Source of the DNA: a virus
DNA length: 22,080 nucleotides
Virus record (IMG/VR): IMGVR_UViG_3300043452_000043
Location: 1 to 22,080 of that record
Direction: 5' to 3' (one strand)
Shown: positions 184 through 14,755 of the stretch, piece after piece
Numbering within the stretch: the stretch's first letter is position 1
Layout of the letters: each line of letters opens with the position of its first letter
Notes under the pieces: model-generated
What the model saw: the letters and a program-made list of their open reading frames with translations, nothing else
Databases searched by the model: none
What the model was told of the DNA's origin: nothing
Translations under genes and position numbers: made by a program

Positions 184-1305
184 CTATTCTTTGCCTAGAT
201 ACCTAAACCCTTGAACGGCTCTGAAGTGCCCACCATAGCCCGCTTTGGGGTTCACAAAGCCGCCCTTAGCGGCCGACTTGGCGATGCTGGCCATGCTGCG
301 GGCTTTGTTGTTGCCCACCAGATTAGCTGATACCTGCGTCCAGCTGCTCGATCGGCGTAGCGCCGTGGCTAAGCCGGGGTGGCTGGTGTGGAACAGGGTC
401 AGCATGGGCTTGTTGTAGCGGTTTTGGCCGGTACGCCACAGCTCGCAGACTGCGTCCAAGAATCGCAAGCCCACCCCGGCACCCTGCCATTGCGGCATGA
501 CTACAAGGCGGCAAGCCCGCGCTTCTTTCATGCCGGCCCTGGTACTCACGCCTACATGGGCTACGAGCTCGCCGTTGACCGTCGCTACATAGTTAGTGGC
601 CGCGATCATGTGGGGCAGCTTTAGATAGTGATGCGGCTCAAATACTGGCCAATGCCGCCAGTTGGTTTGCCAAAGCTCGACGCCCAGTCGTGGCCGCCGC
701 CAAAGTGACCCCCGTAAGAACTTACCGCTGCCGGTGTCAAACACCCAGTCCGGCTGTACCCAGTCCAAGATGTCGTAATGGCAGCTCAATAACACCACTT
801 GCCCCTTGGTGCGCCGCCACGCCTTGGCAAACGCGCCCGCGCCGATCTGGGCGATTTGCCGGTCGACGACGCTGCTGAACTCATCCAAAACGGCCTGTTC
901 TGGCGCTTCAGCGATCAGTCTGGCCAAGTTGGCACGGAACTGTTCGCCGTTGGACAGCACGCTGTATGGCCGCAGCCATGTGGGCACGCTGCCCAAGCCG
1001 ACGCTAGATAAGGCGGTTGTGACCTCGTCAAACGAGCCCTCAGGGGCGATGGCGTCTATCACGGGCGCATTAGTTGGCCATTCAGGCGCGTACAGGGCGT
1101 GTTTTCCCCACAAATTGCGCCCAATACTGGTCTTACCTGACCCGCTAGGGCCGACAATCACCCCGATTTGCCACGGTGCGCTCTCAAGGTCGATATCGGC
1201 CTCTAGGCTGAAATTAGCGCCCGTTTCGACATTGAACAATGACTTCACCCGCGCCGCGCGGTAACTGTTGAAATCGTCGCATTGGTGTTTAACGTCGATT
1301 TTCAT
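184..1305 (-). CDS. ABC-ATPase/GNAT fusion protein, candidate DNA-modification enzyme in the mom position
   Basis: The protein is 373 residues from ATG 1305, which overlaps the previous stop as ATGA and has an AAGGTGG ribosome site. The first half is a soluble ABC-type ATPase: Walker A GPSGSGKT at 52-59, signature LSNGEQ at 117-122, Walker B VLDEF at 139-143, a D-loop-like SVVD and a switch His near 176. The second half is a GNAT acyltransferase: an HHYL motif at 225-228 and the acyl-CoA loop QWQGAGVG at 272-279. No membrane segment is visible, so it is not a transporter. It is the last gene of the late operon, downstream of a Com homologue, exactly where Mu has mom. Mu Mom is a GNAT-fold enzyme that modifies adenine in phage DNA to block restriction. 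I infer a similar role here, with the ATPase possibly handling DNA access or substrate activation. The domain calls are firm; the DNA-modification role is an inference. Confidence 0.85.
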   Translation of the reverse strand: MKIDVKHQCDDFNSYRAARVKSLFNVETGANFSLEADIDLESAPWQIGVIVGPSGSGKTSIGRNLWGKHALYAPEWPTNAPVIDAIAPEGSFDEVTTALSSVGLGSVPTWLRPYSVLSNGEQFRANLARLIAEAPEQAVLDEFSSVVDRQIAQIGAGAFAKAWRRTKGQVVLLSCHYDILDWVQPDWVFDTGSGKFLRGSLWRRPRLGVELWQTNWRHWPVFEPHHYLKLPHMIAATNYVATVNGELVAHVGVSTRAGMKEARACRLVVMPQWQGAGVGLRFLDAVCELWRTGQNRYNKPMLTLFHTSHPGLATALRRSSSWTQVSANLVGNNKARSMASIAKSAAKGGFVNPKAGYGGHFRAVQGFRYLGKE

Positions 1306-1463
1306 ACGCAAACCACCTTGACCTTTAGGCCCTGCTTGGTCAGCCTACTATATAGAGCGCATTGGTGCATTTCGTCTCTGGCCGTGATGACTAAGCCGTA
1401 TTGCTGCCGGTAAGCAAAGCCGTTTTCACCGGGTCGGAGGCTTGTTTTTGGAGTCTTCGTCAT
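1302..1463 (-). CDS. Small 53-aa protein between com and the ATPase/GNAT gene
   Basis: This is a 53-residue ORF with a strong ribosome site (GAAAGGA, 7 bases before ATG 1463). Its start lies inside the 3' end of com, in another frame, and its stop overlaps the next start as ATGA. This tight coupling on both sides supports a real gene. The protein has a compact pattern (YGLVITARDE, then HQ.LYSRL..QG.KVKVV) that looks like a small alpha/beta fold; I do not recognise a named family. Its start is where Mu mom would start relative to com, so it is the first candidate for translational control by Com. Confidence 0.75.
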   Translation of the reverse strand: MTKTPKTSLRPGENGFAYRQQYGLVITARDEMHQCALYSRLTKQGLKVKVVCV

Positions 1464-3226: not shown

Positions 3227-3408
3227 GGTTTAACCTCTTTTTGAATGCTCTTTTGAGTCACATTTGCGCCTAAATAGCCAAAAAATGTGGGGAGTACCAA
3301 AGCAATAAATCCGGCTTCGGTCAAACGGTTTATGGCGAACATCGCCGCATAAAAAAGAGATAGCCCGACTGCAAACCACAATTTCCGGCCGGCTTTCTTG
3401 AAGTTCAT
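3223..3408 (-). CDS. Putative small holin
   Basis: The 61-residue protein starts at ATG 3408, overlapping the endolysin stop (ATGA). It has a basic N-terminus (NFKKAGRK), two hydrophobic segments (about 10-26 and 32-50) and a charged C-terminus. Size and layout fit a two-TM holin, and it lies directly next to the endolysin gene, the usual partner. No family signature was recognised, so an antiholin or another small membrane protein is possible. Confidence 0.55.
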   Translation of the reverse strand: MNFKKAGRKLWFAVGLSLFYAAMFAINRLTEAGFIALVLPTFFGYLGANVTQKSIQKEVKP

Positions 3409-4358
3409 GCCAGCCACCGCTTGTACTTGGCGCTGCGCACCAGCACCACATCGCGCACGTGGTGCCGGTTGATATCGCAAGCGCTGCGCTGGCCATACAA
3501 AGCCGATCGGCTTTTGAGGCAATGCAGTTCAACGTGGTTAAACCAGCGCTGCGGGTTGCAGCCAGCACTCAGCCCACAGGCGCGGCGTTCGTTTTGGACA
3601 CCGCCCATGCCGCCGTTGTAGCCGGCATCGGCAAAGTTCAAACGCTCCATCGGGTCGGCCACCATGCGCAGCGCCTTGAAGTTGTCCAGGCTTTTCAGCA
3701 CCACGGCACGCAGCTGGTAATCCGGCCGCTGGTAAGCGTTGCTCCAGCTCCAGCCGCCCAGCGCCGGGTGCGCCGATCGCATCTCAGCCAGGGCGTCAAA
3801 GCGCAAGCCGCCGTCTTTGCGGTAAGCACGGGTGATTTGGCCAAAGCCTGCGCCTTCCTCGCGCTTTGTTTTCAGCTGCGCGGCCGGGCTCCAGCATGAG
3901 CGAACGCGTGGGCAGGCAGATTCGTGGTCAACCAAACCGCCCAGCTGCTCAGGCGCGGGGTGTTGCGGCCAGTATTTGACCTGCTCGGCCTTCAGCACTG
4001 GCAAATATGGCAGCGCCTGCTTGGGCACTTCCTGCGCGTTAACCACCCCAACAAACAAATAAACCAAGCCAAAAAAAATGATGCCTTTGTAAATCAAAGC
4101 CCGACCGGCTCCCTCTGGCGTCTCCTTAGCCTTTTGCAGCATGGCTTGCGTGTCGCCCTCCGGGTAATCGTTCCATGCCTTTGTAGCCCAATAGACAAAT
4201 GCCAATACCACCAAGCCGCGAGAGATACGCAGCGCCCATGTGATCTCATCCGCCCCGAATGGCAGAGCGTAAATAAAACCGTAATCCGGGTTGGTTGACA
4301 GCAAGGCAATCAGCGTGAGTATCGCGCCGCCAAAGATGAATTTATATCTAAATCTCAT
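3405..4358 (-). CDS. Membrane-anchored lytic transglycosylase (phage endolysin)
   Basis: This 317-residue protein has a strong ribosome site (AAAGGAG before ATG 4358). Residues 1-106 hold three hydrophobic segments (about 6-20, 47-58, 91-106). From about 120 on is an SLT/lysozyme-like domain: likely catalytic Glu146 in DHES, then CWSPAAQLKT, GFGQIT at 171-176 and YNGG at 247-250, an order typical of lytic transglycosylases. The domain has six cysteines (149, 155, 261, 267, 280, 294), suggesting disulfides and a periplasmic location, which agrees with three TM segments and a cytoplasmic N-terminus. The enzyme would cut peptidoglycan at lysis. An endolysin fused to a multi-TM region is less usual than a soluble or single-anchor one. 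Confidence 0.85.
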   Translation of the reverse strand: MRFRYKFIFGGAILTLIALLSTNPDYGFIYALPFGADEITWALRISRGLVVLAFVYWATKAWNDYPEGDTQAMLQKAKETPEGAGRALIYKGIIFFGLVYLFVGVVNAQEVPKQALPYLPVLKAEQVKYWPQHPAPEQLGGLVDHESACPRVRSCWSPAAQLKTKREEGAGFGQITRAYRKDGGLRFDALAEMRSAHPALGGWSWSNAYQRPDYQLRAVVLKSLDNFKALRMVADPMERLNFADAGYNGGMGGVQNERRACGLSAGCNPQRWFNHVELHCLKSRSALYGQRSACDINRHHVRDVVLVRSAKYKRWLA

Positions 4359-10551: not shown

Positions 10552-11087
10552 TGCTCACCGCCCAAATCGCCACCACGTACTGGGTTTTCTGCTTCGCCAC
10601 GCACCTCCGGCTCGGTGTAAACCGTTTGCGCCGGTTCACCTGTGGCAGTTTCAACAGCTACTGCAGGGCGCATCTCCGTAAACGCATCAACGTAGTTTGG
10701 CAAATCAACCACGTACTCTTTCATCGTGAGCTGGCCGGTCACCGCGATCAGCGTGCCGTCTGTCATGGTTTGTGATGCCGTTTGCTTCAGCTGCAGCAGC
10801 ACATAGTCGCCCACAATATGCCCGTTTGCGAACATAAAGGTCAACGCCTCATGCGCCCGCACCGCATTGCGAAGGCGTGCCATTTCGGCTTCCGGCTGGC
10901 AAAACCCCGCGTGGAACGACAGGTCTATGGTGATTTCATCAAGTTCATCGCCCACCCACTGCAGGCGGGGCTTGCGCTCAATCAAAGCATGCTCCGCGAA
11001 GCTAGCCCCCACAGTGTGGTCAAAGCCCGGCAAATAGGTGATCAGGTTAAATGCGATATCGCCTAAAAGTGCAAATTGTTGTTCCAT
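10548..11087 (-). CDS. U: Tail protein U
   Basis: The first 140 residues fit the P2 gpU family: LGDIAFNLITYLPGFDHTVGASFAEHALIERKPRLQWVGD, a LDEITIDLSFHAGFC strand pair, and a DYVLLQLKQT end. The final 35-40 residues are an acidic, Gly/Glu-rich extension (TGEP, TYTEPEVRG) absent from short family members. U is a tail-completion protein in P2. The start codon shares one base with the tape-measure stop (TGATG), so the two are translated in series. Confidence 0.85.
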   Translation of the reverse strand: MEQQFALLGDIAFNLITYLPGFDHTVGASFAEHALIERKPRLQWVGDELDEITIDLSFHAGFCQPEAEMARLRNAVRAHEALTFMFANGHIVGDYVLLQLKQTASQTMTDGTLIAVTGQLTMKEYVVDLPNYVDAFTEMRPAVAVETATGEPAQTVYTEPEVRGEAENPVRGGDLGGEQ

Positions 11088-13456
11088 CAGAATGCCACCC
11101 GTGACTGCTCGGCCATGACGCGACGCATCATACGCTCTAGGTCTCGCACGCTCATGTTCAAGGCCTGTTGCACGCCTTCACTAACGCCGGCGCCGCCGCC
11201 TGTGATGGTGATCTGCGGGGCGAAAGTAATGTTGATGCCGCCAGCGGCGCCGTGGCCACCTGCCATCGCTAGGCTACCGCCCGCGAAGGCAGCGCCGGCC
11301 AAGGCCACGCCGGCCAGCTTGCTGACCGCGCTCTTGACGCCTGGCACCGAGTTTTTAATACCTATCTCAGCGCCTTGCCCGATGTTTGAGCCAAAGCCCA
11401 TGAACACGCGGCTTGGGCTCTTGATGCCCAGCGTGGACGAAAACCAGCCTTTAATGTCATTACCGAAACCAACGATTGTTGTTTTCGCGGCCTGCAGTTT
11501 GGATGTCACACCGCCAATGAGGCCGTCTATCAAGTCAACGCCCATTTGCTTGAACATGCTTGGTAGCGTTTTAAACCAGCTCCAGGTGTTGAAGAATGAA
11601 GCCTTGACCAGCGCCCAGCCCTTTGCAAAAAAGCCACTGATGGGTGCCCAGTATTTGTAAAGCAGGAAAGCCGAAACGGCAATGCCCGTGATGATTAAAC
11701 CGATCGGGTTCATCAGCAAAGCGCGGCCGAGCCAAAGCACGGCTTGACCCGCCAAGCGCAGCCCAAATAGCAGCGTACCCCGCAACACCGTGCCCAGCCA
11801 AACAGCGCCCCTCGCCATCATGCTTAGCCCACCGCCAAGAAGCGGCATCATTCGTAACGCTGTACTCCCCACACGAAACGCGGCCATAGCCACGCCTACG
11901 CCGAAGAAACCGGCGGCTAATACTGCCAGTGTGCCGACAACAGCGATGCCCCCGCTTGCCGCCTTTGGATATTCCTTCATGAGCCCCGATAAGCCTGAAG
12001 TGGTTCGCCCTATCCAGTAGGCTGCAACGCCAAAAATTGGTGCAAGCCGATTACCCACCTCAATCATCAAATCATTTGTCGCTACCTTCATGTACTCGGT
12101 CTGTACAGTAGCAAGCTTCATCTGCTCGGCATAGTCATTTGCGACAGTGTCGTTTGTGCTGCTTTTCTCCAGCTCCTTGCGGCCTTCAGCGTATTTGCCT
12201 TTGCCGTTTCTGTAGGCCAAATACGCCTGTGTGGCTTGAATGTCCTGGAGCACGGCTGACAAGCCCATACGCTCAACGGAAGATTTAACGCGGTCTTGCA
12301 GTGCCTCGCCCTGCAGTCCCTCTTTTTTGGCAATCTCCATCACCTGATCAAGCTCTTTACGAACGTCGACCATTTCAGACTTGCCCTTTTTGTTCGTGGT
12401 TTTGACAAAGCCCTGCTCTGTCACGCGGTTCAGATACTCATCAAAAACCATAAAGCTCGCCTCGATCGCGGAGGTGCGCTTCTCAATCATGACTTTGAGT
12501 TTTTCTTTTTCAAAGTTGATGCCGACCTTTTGGAAATGGTCTTGCGTGCTTTTTGCTGACATGTGACTAAACCAGTTGCGCATGTTCGTGTCAGCGTCGC
12601 CAGTAGTGCCGGCGCCAGCCCGCATAACTTGCATCATCATGCCCATCTCACGAACGCCGTCTAAGCCTTTTGAGCCGAAGGAAGCAGCTGCGCCGCCCAG
12701 CTCTGGGAAGCTTTTAGCCATTTGCTTCAGCTCGTACTGGCCAAGCTTGCCCGCCTTGGCCAAGGCGTTAACCGCCTGCATCACATCGCCCTCGGTCGTC
12801 AGCTTGAATTTGGTTTGTAAGGTGTACACCAGCTCAGCCAGCTCGCCCATGTCGGTGCGGGTGGCAGTGTTCACCTGTGCCAGCAGCCCAGCATACTTTT
12901 GGGCGGTTTTAGGATCCATGCCTTGCGCTACCAGCCGTTCTACGCCCTCGGCAACTTTATCTTGCTGCACCGCGTATTTCACGGCCGCTTGGCGAATGGC
13001 GTTCGCCATCTCAGCTTCAGCGCCGCCTTGCTTGTATAGCTCGCCAACGATACTGATTTGTTTGACGCGGTCTTCAAATTTGGCCGCTCGCACGCCTGGC
13101 AAGGCCATAGACGCGCCAATGCCGACCGCTGCGGCAGCGTTTCCATATTGGTTGCGTAAGTTGGCGCGACTTGCGTCGTGCTCCGCGCCTAATGTCTCTA
13201 ACCGGTGCTTGCGGGTGGCAAGCTGCTGCAGCTTCTTGTCTAATCTATCCACCTCATTGGCGTATTTTTTGACCGAATTACCGCCGTAAACCCACTCTCT
13301 GTCCATGCTCTGCAGGGCGGCTTTTTGCTGCCCCTTGAGTTTTTCCATCGTTTTGCCTATACTTCCAACGCGCTCATTCACTGTCCCAAAGGCTGCGGCA
13401 GCCCCGCCGAAGCCAAGGGCAGAGATTACAATTCCGAGTGTGAGGGTCTTAGACAT
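11087..13456 (-). CDS. T: Tail tape measure protein
   Basis: The 789-residue protein sets tail length. It starts with MSKTLTLGIVISALGFGGA and a long helical region, followed by a TP901-type core (VKQISIVGELYKQGGAEAEMANAIRQ to YVQQDKVAEGVERLVAQG). Strongly hydrophobic segments occupy the middle (about 500-625, including GGIAVVGTLAVLAAGFFGVGVAMA and MNPIGLIITGIAVSAFLLYKYW), and a Gly-rich C-terminus ends near VMAEQSRVAF. These hydrophobic parts probably insert in the host membrane during DNA entry. The minus-strand start codon overlaps the start codon of a rightward gene (CATG), and there is no clear Shine-Dalgarno sequence ahead of it, unlike most neighbours. Confidence 0.92.
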   Translation of the reverse strand: MSKTLTLGIVISALGFGGAAAAFGTVNERVGSIGKTMEKLKGQQKAALQSMDREWVYGGNSVKKYANEVDRLDKKLQQLATRKHRLETLGAEHDASRANLRNQYGNAAAAVGIGASMALPGVRAAKFEDRVKQISIVGELYKQGGAEAEMANAIRQAAVKYAVQQDKVAEGVERLVAQGMDPKTAQKYAGLLAQVNTATRTDMGELAELVYTLQTKFKLTTEGDVMQAVNALAKAGKLGQYELKQMAKSFPELGGAAASFGSKGLDGVREMGMMMQVMRAGAGTTGDADTNMRNWFSHMSAKSTQDHFQKVGINFEKEKLKVMIEKRTSAIEASFMVFDEYLNRVTEQGFVKTTNKKGKSEMVDVRKELDQVMEIAKKEGLQGEALQDRVKSSVERMGLSAVLQDIQATQAYLAYRNGKGKYAEGRKELEKSSTNDTVANDYAEQMKLATVQTEYMKVATNDLMIEVGNRLAPIFGVAAYWIGRTTSGLSGLMKEYPKAASGGIAVVGTLAVLAAGFFGVGVAMAAFRVGSTALRMMPLLGGGLSMMARGAVWLGTVLRGTLLFGLRLAGQAVLWLGRALLMNPIGLIITGIAVSAFLLYKYWAPISGFFAKGWALVKASFFNTWSWFKTLPSMFKQMGVDLIDGLIGGVTSKLQAAKTTIVGFGNDIKGWFSSTLGIKSPSRVFMGFGSNIGQGAEIGIKNSVPGVKSAVSKLAGVALAGAAFAGGSLAMAGGHGAAGGINITFAPQITITGGGAGVSEGVQQALNMSVRDLERMMRRVMAEQSRVAF
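13335..13363 (+). promoter_or_regulatory. Sigma70-like promoter for the rightward two-TM gene
   Basis: TTGAGT (13335-13340) and TATACT (13358-13363) are 17 bases apart, matching 4/6 and 5/6 of the consensus boxes with ideal spacing. The site lies inside the 5' end of the leftward tape-measure gene and points away from it, toward ATG 13455, giving a leader of about 85 bases. Codon constraint of the tape-measure gene makes chance matches possible, but the position is just right for the gene it would drive. Confidence 0.55.
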
Positions 13457-13751
13457 GAAAACTTTTGCTGAAATTACTGTGGATCACGAGAACACATTGG
13501 CCGCCGCCGCACCATTGCGTTTTTGGGCGCACTGGCTGATTGGCGGCGTTTTATTTTTTATAGCTATGCTCATTGAAAACCCTTCCCATCTGTTAGCCAC
13601 CGTCATCAACGATCCTTTTGTCATAGCCATTGGTTTTGTATCGTTTGGGCTGATCACTGGCATCATTTCAAAAGTTCTCTTGATGCCTTTGATTCCCGCC
13701 CCCTACGCCTGGCTGGCTAAGCGCCTTGGCTTGGCGTCTCCCTCTGTTTGA
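13455..13751 (+). CDS. Two-TM membrane protein, opposite-strand moron candidate
   Basis: This is the only complete rightward gene I support. The 98-residue protein has a polar N-terminus (MKTFAEITVDHE), TM1 at about 23-40 (FWAHWLIGGVLFFIAMLI), a short loop, TM2 at about 54-79 (PFVIAIGFVSFGLITGIISKVLLMPLI) and a basic end. TGAGGG lies about 8 bases before ATG 13455. It sits in a 260-base gap in the leftward operon between tape measure and E', with a promoter-like site upstream and a stem-loop 5 bases after the stop. Such self-contained inserts (morons) often act in the lysogen, for example in superinfection exclusion or envelope change. I do not recognise the family, so this role is an inference. 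Confidence 0.72.
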   Translation: MKTFAEITVDHENTLAAAAPLRFWAHWLIGGVLFFIAMLIENPSHLLATVINDPFVIAIGFVSFGLITGIISKVLLMPLIPAPYAWLAKRLGLASPSV

Positions 13752-13863
13752 TCTGCTCGCTGGCTAGGTCACACCAGCGAGAAAAATCTGACATCTCCAT
13801 CTCATCCAGCTCCGATGGCTGGAATCCAAACCACTTAGCCAGCAGCCCCTTTGCCTGCCACAT
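13717..13863 (-). CDS. E': GpE-like tail chaperone extension E', read in a second frame
   Basis: A frame too short to appear as a normal ORF encodes MWQAKGLLAKWFGFQPSELD..., 48 residues from ATG 13863. It has the P2 GpE family pattern: a WFGFQPSEL core, then ELDEMEMSDFSRW. It overlaps the 3' end of E and is in the +1 (equivalently -2) frame. In P2, lambda and Mu, such a second chaperone is made as a fusion by programmed frameshift. A run AAAGGGG at 13852-13846, with E-frame codons AAA GGG, would let a ribosome slip +1. Independent initiation at ATG 13863 is possible, but AGGAG touches the ATG and is too close to work well. Confidence 0.75.
   Translation of the reverse strand: MWQAKGLLAKWFGFQPSELDEMEMSDFSRWCDLASEQIKQRETPSQGA
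13756..13781 (+). terminator. Stem-loop after the rightward two-TM gene
   Basis: A perfect 8-bp inverted repeat, CTCGCTGG (13756-13763) and CCAGCGAG (13774-13781), has a 10-base loop and starts 5 bases after the TGA at 13751. No T-run follows on the plus strand (it is followed by AAAAA), so it is not a standard intrinsic terminator and may instead stabilise the RNA or act weakly. It lies within the E' coding region on the other strand. Confidence 0.35.
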
Positions 13864-14227
13864 CTCCTGCAAGTTTGGCAACTTTCCGACTTGACTTACG
13901 GATAAACAAGCCCTGAAAGACGGCCTGGACTTCGGCCAAGTCGGCCATATCCAGTTCCTCCAAGTCTTCTGCGGTTACTTTTTCTTGCGTCAGCATGCTG
14001 ATCAAGAGTATTTCGCTTCGCGCGGCGTCGCTTTCTAAGCGCTGCGCGGCCATCATGTCCTTAGCCTTGCCGCGACGCAGTGTAATGGTCTCAACGACGC
14101 CATTAGGCGTGTTTAACGGCATGTCAAGCACGACGCGCACCATGCCCGCGGGCACTTCACCGCCAGGTGGCGCTACCGCTGCGGCAACCAAATTAACGGC
14201 TTGATTTTGAGTTGATGGGCTATTCAT
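13835..14227 (-). CDS. E: Tail assembly chaperone E
   Basis: This 130-residue protein fits the tail assembly chaperone family of Mu gp41 / P2 gpE: Pro/Gly-rich start, RVVLDMPLNTPNGVVETITLRRGKAKDMMAAQR core, then an acidic helix (TAEDLEELDMADLAEVQAVFQG). It binds the tape measure protein while the tube assembles around it. It lies between the tube gene and the tape measure, the standard place. Its stop is overlapped by the E' frame, whose fusion product is expected at a low fraction. Confidence 0.85.
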   Translation of the reverse strand: MNSPSTQNQAVNLVAAAVAPPGGEVPAGMVRVVLDMPLNTPNGVVETITLRRGKAKDMMAAQRLESDAARSEILLISMLTQEKVTAEDLEELDMADLAEVQAVFQGLFIRKSSRKVAKLAGDVAGKGAAG

Positions 14228-14233
14228 GATCGC

Positions 14234-14755
14234 TTAGCCTCCCAAGTTCGCGCGGTAAATATCCAACTGGTCAATGCCGCCAACCTTGTAGATATTTGCC
14301 ATCGCGTCAAATTCAACCACGTCCACCCCGTTCAACTGCTGACGAATGTAGTAACAGGCAAACGCGCTGTTGAACTCGGCGTTGTCATGCTGCTTGAAAG
14401 TGCCAAGCGGGTTCTTTTTGAACGCGACAGTTAGAAAGGTCACCAGCGCTTGCTGCTGAACTCGGCCTTGTGCTGTGTAGGTTTCCACGTTAGAACGGCA
14501 TTGCAGCTGCACCGAGGCGAACGGGTTGGCTACTTTGAGCCAGGCGTCCTCGTAGAAGCTGTTCCACTTCAAGTCGCCTTCCATCTTGTCGAAACCGCTA
14601 GGCAGCTCGATCTTGCCGACCATGCCAAGCGCTTTGTGCTCCGTCATCATGGCGCTGATTTCCGGCAACTTGATTTCTTCAGCGCGGCCAAGCAGGCTGT
14701 TGCCGTCAAAATAAATGTTCGCATTGGTGATGCGGTTGAGTTTGATTTGTGACAT
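14234..14755 (-). CDS. FII: Major tail tube protein FII
   Basis: The 173-residue protein is of the P2 FII tail tube family: NRITNANIYFDGNSLLGRAEEIKLPEI start, then KALGMVGKIELPSGFDKMEGDLKWNSFYEDAW, and a C-terminal VVEFDAMANIYKVGGIDQLD. Hexameric rings of this protein stack to form the inner tube through which DNA passes. It follows the sheath gene, as in all contractile tails of this type. CGGAG lies upstream of ATG 14755. Confidence 0.92.
   Translation of the reverse strand: MSQIKLNRITNANIYFDGNSLLGRAEEIKLPEISAMMTEHKALGMVGKIELPSGFDKMEGDLKWNSFYEDAWLKVANPFASVQLQCRSNVETYTAQGRVQQQALVTFLTVAFKKNPLGTFKQHDNAEFNSAFACYYIRQQLNGVDVVEFDAMANIYKVGGIDQLDIYRANLGG

What the first reader, a model, noticed from the sequence alone, without database searches (positions are those of the whole stretch)
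13335..13781. Self-contained rightward two-TM gene inserted in the tail operon (moron candidate)
A TTGAGT-17-TATACT promoter-like site, an SD, a two-TM 98-residue ORF and a stem-loop after the stop form one unit on the plus strand, in the only 260-base hole of the leftward operon, between tape measure and E'. Genes with this layout are often expressed from the silent prophage and change the host envelope or block superinfection.
Basis: partly seen in the sequence, partly recalled or inferred. Interest (0 to 1): 0.75.

Follow-up and report, generated by a model that had tools for sequence, protein, structure and literature searches.

The report
Antisense membrane gene beside tape measure
A small gene for a two-span membrane protein is wedged backwards between two tail genes of this Mu-like bacterial virus; relatives carry very different small membrane genes in the same spot, probably made by the dormant virus to keep rival viruses out.

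Summary
The + strand carries a 98-residue two-TM ORF (13455-13751) in the 260-nt gap between E' and the tape measure gene T, with a Shine-Dalgarno and a TTGAGT-17-TATACT promoter inside T's coding sequence. The hairpin after the stop lacks a U tract and lies within E', so it is not an intrinsic terminator.

It is a gene. Of the six viral contigs closest in protein E, five carry a homologue; the sixth lacks gene and gap alike. The antisense -10 sits in the same T codons in all seven sequences compared. The class shows purifying selection.

It is one member of an apparently undescribed class. Of 97 locus clusters, 47 carry an antisense membrane gene at this slot (46 scoring two or more spans), in 19 sequence families. 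They start beside T, mostly end overlapping E', and come and go as a unit between close relatives. In about half, a -10 hexamer ends 6-8 nt before the ATG, predicting leaderless mRNA; the window's own gene does not do this.

Best reading: a prophage-expressed inner-membrane moron that blocks genome entry by phages with related tape measures, like HK97 gp15, which occupies the corresponding slot. Moron status is well supported; expression and exclusion are untested.

The parts
13455..13751 (+). 98-aa two-TM protein gene (the slot gene), convergent with E' and divergent from T
   Evidence: ORF; homologue on the opposite strand in the same slot in L003 (49% identity, E 5e-26) and relatives in Bise, L010, L011, L016, L017
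13335..13340 (+). -35 element TTGAGT, inside T coding sequence
   Evidence: TTGxxx in 6 of 7 family members and TTCAAT in the seventh, spacing 16-18
13358..13363 (+). -10 element TATACT, antisense of T codons 32-33 (AGT ATA)
   Evidence: same alignment column in 7 of 7 sequences compared, 91 nt before the ATG (88 in L002)
13370..13454 (+). predicted 85-nt leader (start site inferred from the -10 position)
   Evidence: inference
13442..13446 (+). Shine-Dalgarno-like GAGGG, 8 nt before the ATG
13454..13457 (.). CATG palindrome in which the start codons of T (-) and of the slot gene (+) overlap
   Evidence: alignment
13756..13781 (+). hairpin (8-bp stem, 10-nt loop) after the stop, without a U tract, inside E' coding
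11087..13456 (-). tape measure gene T (789 aa, PhageMin_Tail PF10145)
13717..13881 (-). E' reading frame (P2 GpE, PF06528), presumably reached by frameshift from E
13835..14227 (-). tail assembly chaperone E (PF10109)
14234..14755 (-). tail tube FII (PF04985), the survey anchor

Best explanation
The gene is a moron made by the silent prophage. It encodes a small inner-membrane hairpin with both ends in the cytoplasm. It is read against the late tail operon from a sigma-70-type promoter buried in the 5' end of the tape measure gene. In the lysogen the late operon is off and the gene is on; during lytic growth, late transcription from the other strand would switch it off by collision (inferred). 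The protein most likely blocks DNA entry of incoming phages whose tape measure resembles the resident one, acting at the inner membrane on the tape measure or on the host protein it uses (inferred). It is one member of a class of fast-diverging membrane morons locked to the slot between E' and T in phages with this tail type. Shown by sequence: gene, selection, promoter conservation, topology bias, presence or absence as a unit. Inferred: expression, silencing, exclusion.
For: Slot enrichment: 43 of 97 slot windows hold an antisense 45-130 aa two-TM ORF, against 1 of 230 antisense windows in T bodies and 0 of 435 upstream; on the sense strand 0 of 97, 0 of 230 and 3 of 435 (KD>=1.5). Selection: pN<pS in 119 of 121 pairs, median dN/dS 0.27; WIN/L002 pS 0.73, pN 0.34. 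Promoter: TATACT/TAAACT in 7 of 7 sequences compared at the same place; null probability of such a hexamer under own codon usage 0.016-0.0004 in six loci; 0 of 27 gene-lacking clusters have one in the first 50 T codons. Absence as a unit: L129/L136, L134/L133, L065/L056. Topology: C-tail K+R exceeds loop in 45 of 46, loop K+R zero in 42 of 46. Among 37 loci (666 pairs), slot similarity follows the T N-part given E' (partial Mantel 0.331, p 0.0005) and not tube given T (0.018, p 0.40); 27 of 27 slot-similar pairs have similar T N-part and middle, 21 of 27 similar tube. Precedent: HK97 gp15 lies between chaperone and tape measure; [quoted passage not shown] Phage Tab targets the tape measure from a prophage (PMC10884400 passages). 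T4 Imm, an entry-exclusion protein of a contractile-tailed phage, has the same build: 83 aa, two hydrophobic spans.
Against: No transcript or phenotype data. The coupling to T could be plain linkage, since the promoter lies in T; slot similarity also follows E' given T (0.188, p 0.017) and does not follow the T C-part given tube (0.128, p 0.10). In 48 of 91 pairs with a similar T middle, and 8 of 53 with a similar T N-part, the slot proteins look unrelated. No defence-library match for 10 slot proteins, no fold match below E 3, no real sequence match of Imm or gp15 to the 47 slot proteins (best E 0.23). 14 of 60 clusters with a gap of 140 nt or more lack an antisense two-TM gene. With the full -35/-10 score the synonymous test is weaker: P 0.0002-0.059.
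Confidence: 0.5

Rival explanations
1. A prophage-expressed membrane moron that does not exclude by entry block but alters the envelope or host physiology (receptor masking, stress tolerance, membrane potential), sitting next to T only because that junction tolerates insertions.
For: One slot family matches phrog_20219, filed as 'membrane protein; moron' with no function stated. Slot families are very diverse (19 by blastp), and many T-similar pairs have unrelated slot proteins.
Against: Slot similarity follows T rather than tube. The same slot holds HK97 gp15. Membrane proteins recur here in either orientation (Smp131 'putative membrane protein'), which suggests a shared membrane role tied to T.
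Confidence: 0.27
2. A Tab-like tail assembly blocker that binds newly made tape measure of superinfecting phages in the cell.
For: Tab is a small prophage-expressed moron whose target maps to the tape measure; same gene neighbourhood as T here.
Against: Two membrane spans with strong positive-inside bias point to the membrane. Tab is encoded between the terminase genes and the word transmembrane does not occur in its paper's main text. Tab's effect maps to the T C-terminus, the part that slot similarity does not follow. No anti-Tab-like partner was looked for here.
Confidence: 0.08
3. The antisense RNA, not the protein, is the functional product: a cis-antisense regulator of T and E'.
For: The transcript would cover the T start region and the E' 3' end; gene ends overlap E' in 39 of 46.
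Against: Protein-level purifying selection and charge topology in 45 of 46 demand a protein. An RNA role could exist as well.
Confidence: 0.08
4. A holin or antiholin, or another lytic protein.
For: Small two-TM protein.
Against: Opposite strand to the late operon. An endolysin match (3405-4358) and a weak spanin match (1787-2263) lie elsewhere on the minus strand. No PHROG match for the protein.
Confidence: 0.03
5. A chance open frame opposite a spacer.
For: Promoter score alone is at chance level.
Against: Homologues with low dN/dS, 43 of 97 against 1 of 230 enrichment, promoter conservation.
Confidence: 0.01

Closest known systems
Escherichia phage HK97 gp15 (superinfection exclusion moron)
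   Same: Small membrane protein encoded between the frameshifted tail protein and the tape measure gene; predicted inner-membrane location; blocks DNA injection, with escape by tail tube/tape measure exchange (as told in PMC10883804, passages).
   Different: HK97 gp15 is on the same strand as the tail genes, has a putative terminator annotated, is 62 aa and scores one hydrophobic span. The window gene is antisense, two-span and overlaps both neighbours. No sequence similarity to the window protein at E<=1.
Phage T4 Imm (immunity to superinfection)
   Same: 83 aa with two hydrophobic spans; the record's note says it mediates a membrane change that leaves superinfecting DNA in the periplasm; T4 has a contractile tail (recalled).
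   Different: Gene of a lytic phage, beside gene 42, not beside a tape measure gene; no sequence similarity to the window protein at E<=1.
Pseudomonas phage Bise WWQ71680.1 (hypothetical protein)
   Same: Same slot, same antisense orientation, same C-terminal motif (P-x-P-[YF]-A-W-L-A-x-R-L-G), same promoter position.
   Different: Diverged (31% in the family alignment); no function given.
PHROGs phrog_20219 ('membrane protein', moron category) and phrog_18301 (unknown function)
   Same: Match two other slot families (L081 type E 2.8e-34; L056 type E 1.2e-17).
   Different: They do not match the window protein.
Phage JBD26 Tab
   Same: Small prophage-expressed moron whose target is the tape measure of incoming phages (PMC10884400 passages).
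   Different: Encoded between the terminase genes; blocks tail assembly, not entry.
Stenotrophomonas phage Smp131 Smp_29 ('putative membrane protein')
   Same: Lies between E' and T and has one strong hydrophobic span.
   Different: On the sense strand; 138 nt as annotated.

Membership tests
phage moron | Own promoter | tested here: met
   Antisense -10 at the same place in 7 of 7 sequences compared; synonymous test. By sequence only.
phage moron | Own terminator | tested here: not met
   Hairpin without U tract; 3 of 47 in the class have a terminator-like site. Many described morons have one (recalled), so this departs from the textbook layout.
phage moron | Present or absent as a unit between close relatives | tested here: met
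   L129/L136 (first 150 T residues 94%, tube 95%; gap 21 against 183 nt), L134/L133 (90%, 97%; -1 against 145), L065/L056 (84%, 91%; 37 against 246). For the window's own family the lacking relative, L019, is more distant: 51% over 136 T residues to its closest gene-bearing cluster L011, gap -1.
phage moron | Expressed from the repressed prophage | not testable with these tools
   No RNA data.
HK97 gp15-type superinfection exclusion | Located between chaperone and tape measure gene | tested here: met
HK97 gp15-type superinfection exclusion | Integral membrane protein | tested here: met
   Hydropathy and charge bias; AF2 helices. Predicted, not measured.
HK97 gp15-type superinfection exclusion | Same strand as the tail genes, as in HK97 | tested here: not met
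   Antisense in the window; the 47 class members were collected as antisense genes.
HK97 gp15-type superinfection exclusion | Sequence similarity to HK97 gp15 | tested here: not met
   blastp of gp15 against 47 slot proteins: best E 0.23, none to the window protein at E<=1.
HK97 gp15-type superinfection exclusion | Blocks genome entry, relieved by tape measure change | not testable with these tools
   Only indirect: slot similarity follows T.
leaderless slot-gene subclass defined here | -10 hexamer ending 5-8 nt before the ATG | tested here: not met
   Window: -10 ends 91 nt before the ATG and there is an SD. Met by 26 of 47 class members.
known defence families (PADLOC) | Profile match | tested here: not met
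   0 of 10 slot proteins matched, the window protein among them, at E<=0.01.

The most novel reading that the evidence does not exclude
Phages of this Mu-headed, P2-tailed type carry, head-to-head with their tape measure gene, a dedicated and rapidly diversifying exclusion gene. Gene and likely target form one exchangeable cassette. The gene is often leaderless, its promoter is woven into the first codons of the tape measure gene, and it is switched off simply by late transcription running the other way, so the phage needs no self-immunity factor. The chaperone-tape measure junction would then be a general site for genome-entry immunity in both contractile and non-contractile tailed phages.
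Probability: 0.33. Interest if true: 0.78.

Novelty: new variant of a known kind. Interest (0 to 1): 0.66.

Why it matters
If right, it gives a large set of mostly unannotated candidate superinfection-exclusion genes that can be found by position rather than by sequence. It names their likely target (the adjacent tape measure protein) and predicts specificity from the tape measure type. It would bring entry-level exclusion, described in the passages read for siphophages and podophages and known for lytic T4 through Imm, to temperate contractile-tailed phages. The promoter inside tape measure codons is also a clean case of overlapping regulatory and coding constraint that can be tested by synonymous changes in a laboratory phage.

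Tried and rejected
Chance ORF: rejected. Intrinsic terminator after the stop: rejected for the window. Close homologues by straight search: tblastn of the protein in phages found none at E<=1, and peptide-pattern scans of viral contigs and genome contigs confirmed none. The way in was the flanking genes (the last two keep only the best 80 loci each).

Class counts rest on these choices. Loci were clustered by shared 11-mers (167 loci to 97 clusters). From 51 automatic slot calls I dropped five as likely chance frames (L019, L077, L156, L167, L169) and added L010 by homology, giving 47; L010 is the one that does not score two spans. I reassigned the start codon by eye in 11 of the 47 after seeing the -10 pattern. 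To remove that bias: among the 36 untouched genes, 18 have a -10 at gap 5-8 (15 at exactly 6); with two start rules blind to the -10 the numbers are 22 of 45 and 20 of 44. The further sample also favoured starts with a -10. The hexamer list in the synonymous test (TATACT, TAAACT, TATAAT) was chosen after seeing the sites. The loci of that test share ancestry, so its printed product is not a probability. At the laxer KD>=1.4 the controls rise to 5 of 230 and 2 of 435 antisense, with the slot still at 43 of 97. The E similarity column came out at 0.06 for both groups, which I take to be a wrong ORF choice; it was not used. T starts near slot genes were chosen partly by nearness to the gene, so start-to-start distances are soft. 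The sense count of 0 of 97 depends on the window placed; one search shows sense TM ORFs in L035 and L036. The 149-nt gap of L004 is overstated, since one search shows another frame running up to T there.

Fold searches gave nothing below E 3; profile search of solved structures gave none. E. coli genomes: the L053 slot region had no match; the L055 region matched 28% of the query, in T, in 54 of 5,426 genomes (20 rows seen). BcepMu itself could not be examined (record not held). KS10 has a 48-nt chaperone-T spacing and no such gene annotated. Ten paper searches (searches found nothing, one search listed 20 of 155) showed, in their listings and in the passages opened, no paper describing this antisense slot gene; subscription journals are mostly not held.
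Full report
What is there. The window is a head module whose protease and major head protein match PHROGs head families (that they are of Mu type is recalled), followed on the minus strand by a P2-type tail module: sheath, tube FII, chaperone E, E' (GpE), tape measure T, U, X, D (D below Pfam's cut-off). Between the E' stop (13717) and the T start (13456) lie 260 nt, the largest of the seven gaps of 40 nt or more in my hand-drawn minus-strand gene list. The plus strand holds an ORF of 98 codons, 13455-13751. Its ATG overlaps T's ATG in a shared CATG, and its last 35 nt overlap the end of E'. A promoter-like site TTGAGT-17-TATACT lies at 13335-13363 inside T, and GAGGG stands 8 nt before the ATG. 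The hairpin at 13756-13781 is stable but has no U tract and lies in E'.

It is a gene. The closest relative found in viral contigs, L003 (69% identical in the best T segment), has an ORF in the same place on the opposite strand, 49% identical to the window protein. Pseudomonas phage Bise has an annotated hypothetical protein there, antisense, and L010, L011, L016 and L017 have further members. An unbiased view comes from the search by protein E: of the six viral contigs closest in E (L014-L019), five carry the gene and L019 has neither gene nor gap. Five relatives are joined to the window gene by blastp linkage (L017 is a cluster mate of L008), and the seven aligned proteins share a C-terminal motif P-x-[PL]-[YF]-A-[WM]-[LA]-A-x-[RK]-L-G. 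In the 7 upstream regions compared, including the window, a TATACT (TAAACT in L010) stands at the same alignment position, 91 nt before the ATG (88 in L002), with a TTGxxx hexamer (TTCAAT in L002) at spacing 16-18. In T this is Ser-Ile (Ser-Leu in L010) coded AGT-ATA (AGT-TTA) in the six whose T frame is intact. In L016 and L017 that ATA is the only one among 47 and 44 Ile codons in T, and in L010 that TTA is the only one among 116 Leu codons. Resampling codons from each gene's own usage gives a TATACT, TAAACT or TATAAT anywhere in the first 50 codons with probability 0.0164 (window), 0.0056, 0.0018, 0.0058, 0.0012 and 0.0004; for the whole -35/-10 score the probabilities are 0.0022 (window), 0.033, 0.013, 0.059, 0.0004 and 0.0002. 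None of 27 clusters that lack the slot gene has one of these hexamers. The loci share ancestry, so the figures should not be multiplied, but synonymous sites between the window and L002 are near saturation (pS 0.73 in the slot gene).

It is one of a class. Using the tube protein as anchor, 179 loci were analysed; 167 had a tape measure ORF and fell into 97 clusters. Within -450..+150 of the T start, 43 of 97 have an antisense ORF of 45-130 aa with two hydrophobic spans. The controls are 1 of 230 antisense windows in T bodies and 0 of 435 antisense windows upstream; on the sense strand the three figures are 0 of 97, 0 of 230 and 3 of 435 (KD>=1.5). After curation (see Tried and rejected) 47 slot genes remain, in 19 families by blastp single linkage. 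Of 87 clusters with a recognised E', the gene is present in 46; the median gap is 256 nt with and 92 nt without it. Of 60 gaps of 140 nt or more, 46 hold such a gene. Of the other 14, L012, L132, L157 and L168 hold an antisense one-span ORF of 31-75 aa, and L035 and L036 a sense-strand membrane ORF; the remaining 8 hold no convincing one. Of 27 gaps below 140 nt none holds one. The genes are packed tightly: 39 of 46 overlap the E' end, by a median of 23 nt over all 46. Among named phage records outside the survey set, Pasteurella phage AFS-2018a has an unannotated antisense 77-aa two-span ORF in this slot (L183:4060-4293), while Salmonella SARB27 (L190) and PhiKM (L191) show none.

Selection and topology. 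Across 121 pairs (45-98% identical proteins), pN is below pS in 119, with median dN/dS 0.27, counted only on codons clear of the start and largely clear of E'. Exceptions exist: L159/L163 and L159/L166 have 1.17, comparisons among L028, L128, L133, L139, L141, L149 and L150 reach 0.66-0.85, and in the window's own family L010 or L018 against L008 or L017 give 0.65-0.73 (0.41-0.42 against L016). K+R in the C-terminal tail exceeds that in the loop in 45 of 46, and the loop has none in 42 of 46: a hairpin with both ends in the cytoplasm. AF2 gives the window protein helices 4-18, 23-41, 43-52, 54-79 and 81-90 at mean pLDDT 87.3, with no fold match.

Present or absent as a unit. L129 and L136 are 94% identical over the first 150 T residues and 95% in tube, but have gaps of 21 and 183 nt. 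L134 and L133 are 90% and 97% with gaps of -1 and 145. L065 and L056 are 84% and 91% with gaps of 37 and 246. L019, the lacking relative of the window's family, has gap -1 and one weak -10-like hexamer (GACAAT) but no TATACT-like site in its first T codons.

Leaderless subclass. In 26 of 47 genes a -10-like hexamer ends 5-8 nt before the start codon, in 20 exactly 6 nt, against a mean of 3.2 (maximum 9) in 2,000 shuffles at gap 5-8. It occurs at 0 of 47 T starts and 0 of 47 tube starts at that spacing. By family, 12 of 19 have a member with it. SD motifs of 4 nt or more occur in 2 of these 26 and 6 of the other 21, against 26 of 47 T starts and 42 of 47 tube starts. An extended -10 (TGn) occurs in 13 of 26; the -35 match is modest, 2-5 of 6. 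With start rules blind to the -10 the counts are 22 of 45 and 20 of 44. These mRNAs should therefore begin at or within a few nt of the ATG. In several, the -35 TTGCCA or TTGGCC is the antisense of T's own first codons. The window gene does not belong to this subclass. In a further sample, 29 loci from 399 genomes of the order of G002, 26 showed T and 4 an antisense two-span gene, 3 of them with a -10 at gap 6-7; by eye those three resemble families already seen. I did not type the remaining 22. P2, PSP3, KS5, AP3 and Acica have no gap to hold the gene.

How it probably works. HK97 has its exclusion moron gp15 between the frameshifted tail protein and the tape measure. [quoted passage not shown] PMC13190303 passages link membrane defence at injection to tape measure proteins. 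PMC10884400 passages describe Tab, a prophage-expressed moron aimed at the tape measure. T4 Imm, whose record says it leaves superinfecting DNA in the periplasm, is an 83-aa protein with two hydrophobic spans, the build of the slot proteins, from a contractile-tailed phage, though without sequence similarity to them (best E 0.60). In my data (37 loci, 666 pairs) slot-protein similarity follows the T N-part after allowing for E' (0.331, p 0.0005) and not tube after allowing for T (0.018, p 0.40); it also follows E' after allowing for T (0.188, p 0.017), and not the T C-part after allowing for tube (0.128, p 0.10). 27 of 27 slot-similar pairs have similar T N-part and middle. Against a tight lock, 48 of 91 pairs with similar T middle have unrelated slot proteins, and linkage alone could give the trend. 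I therefore hold the moron reading firmly, entry exclusion as the most likely function, and silencing by late transcription as an inference from orientation only.

What is known. PHROGs holds two of the ten slot proteins tested as families, one filed as a membrane protein in the moron category; a third has a weak amino-acid permease match (E 0.0036). PADLOC and NCBIfam match none of the ten. Bise's gene is annotated as hypothetical; those of Komp_PAO1_1 and AFS-2018a are not annotated. That phages of this build are called BcepMu-like rests on recall and on the record of PhiKM, filed under Bcepmuvirus. My ten paper searches showed no description of the class (listed in Tried and rejected), with the limit that most subscription papers are not held; the BcepMu paper is known to me only from a reference list.

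Noticed in passing
L157 and L168, between E' and T (antisense, 71 and 75 aa): The same slot sometimes holds antisense proteins with one N-terminal membrane span and a charged tail, an architecture like HK97 gp15; L012 and L132 hold 37- and 31-aa one-span ORFs.
   Followed up: partly
L035, L036 and Smp131 (L184:4029-4166): In other P2-like loci the E'-T gap holds a membrane protein on the sense strand, so the junction seems to attract membrane genes in either orientation.
   Followed up: no
L183:4060-4293 (-), Pasteurella phage AFS-2018a: An unannotated antisense 77-aa ORF with two hydrophobic spans lies between the tail assembly gene and the tape measure gene of this named phage.
   Followed up: partly
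L008 (Pseudomonas phage Bise), 5' end of T: The T reading frame breaks at about codon 35 compared with L017 and reaches a stop at codon 44; the deposited T annotation starts downstream. Sequencing error or real cannot be told; intact relatives exist.
   Followed up: partly
L068, L071, L078, L079, L123: In these clusters the distance from tube end to T is 2.2-2.6 kb, so there is extra DNA besides the slot gene. L071 and L123 also carry a second antisense two-TM ORF just after the tube gene.
   Followed up: no
window 184-1311 (-): A 375-aa protein matching phrog_11143 (E 6.8e-158, unknown function) with weaker ABC transporter and acetyltransferase matches lies at the far end of the late region, a candidate for another moron.
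   Followed up: no
L013, L031-L033 (L013 from Avibacterium paragallinarum): The slot gene here encodes a protein of 125 aa with four hydrophobic spans; L013's is linked by blastp to the two-span L025 protein, which suggests duplication of the hairpin.
   Followed up: no
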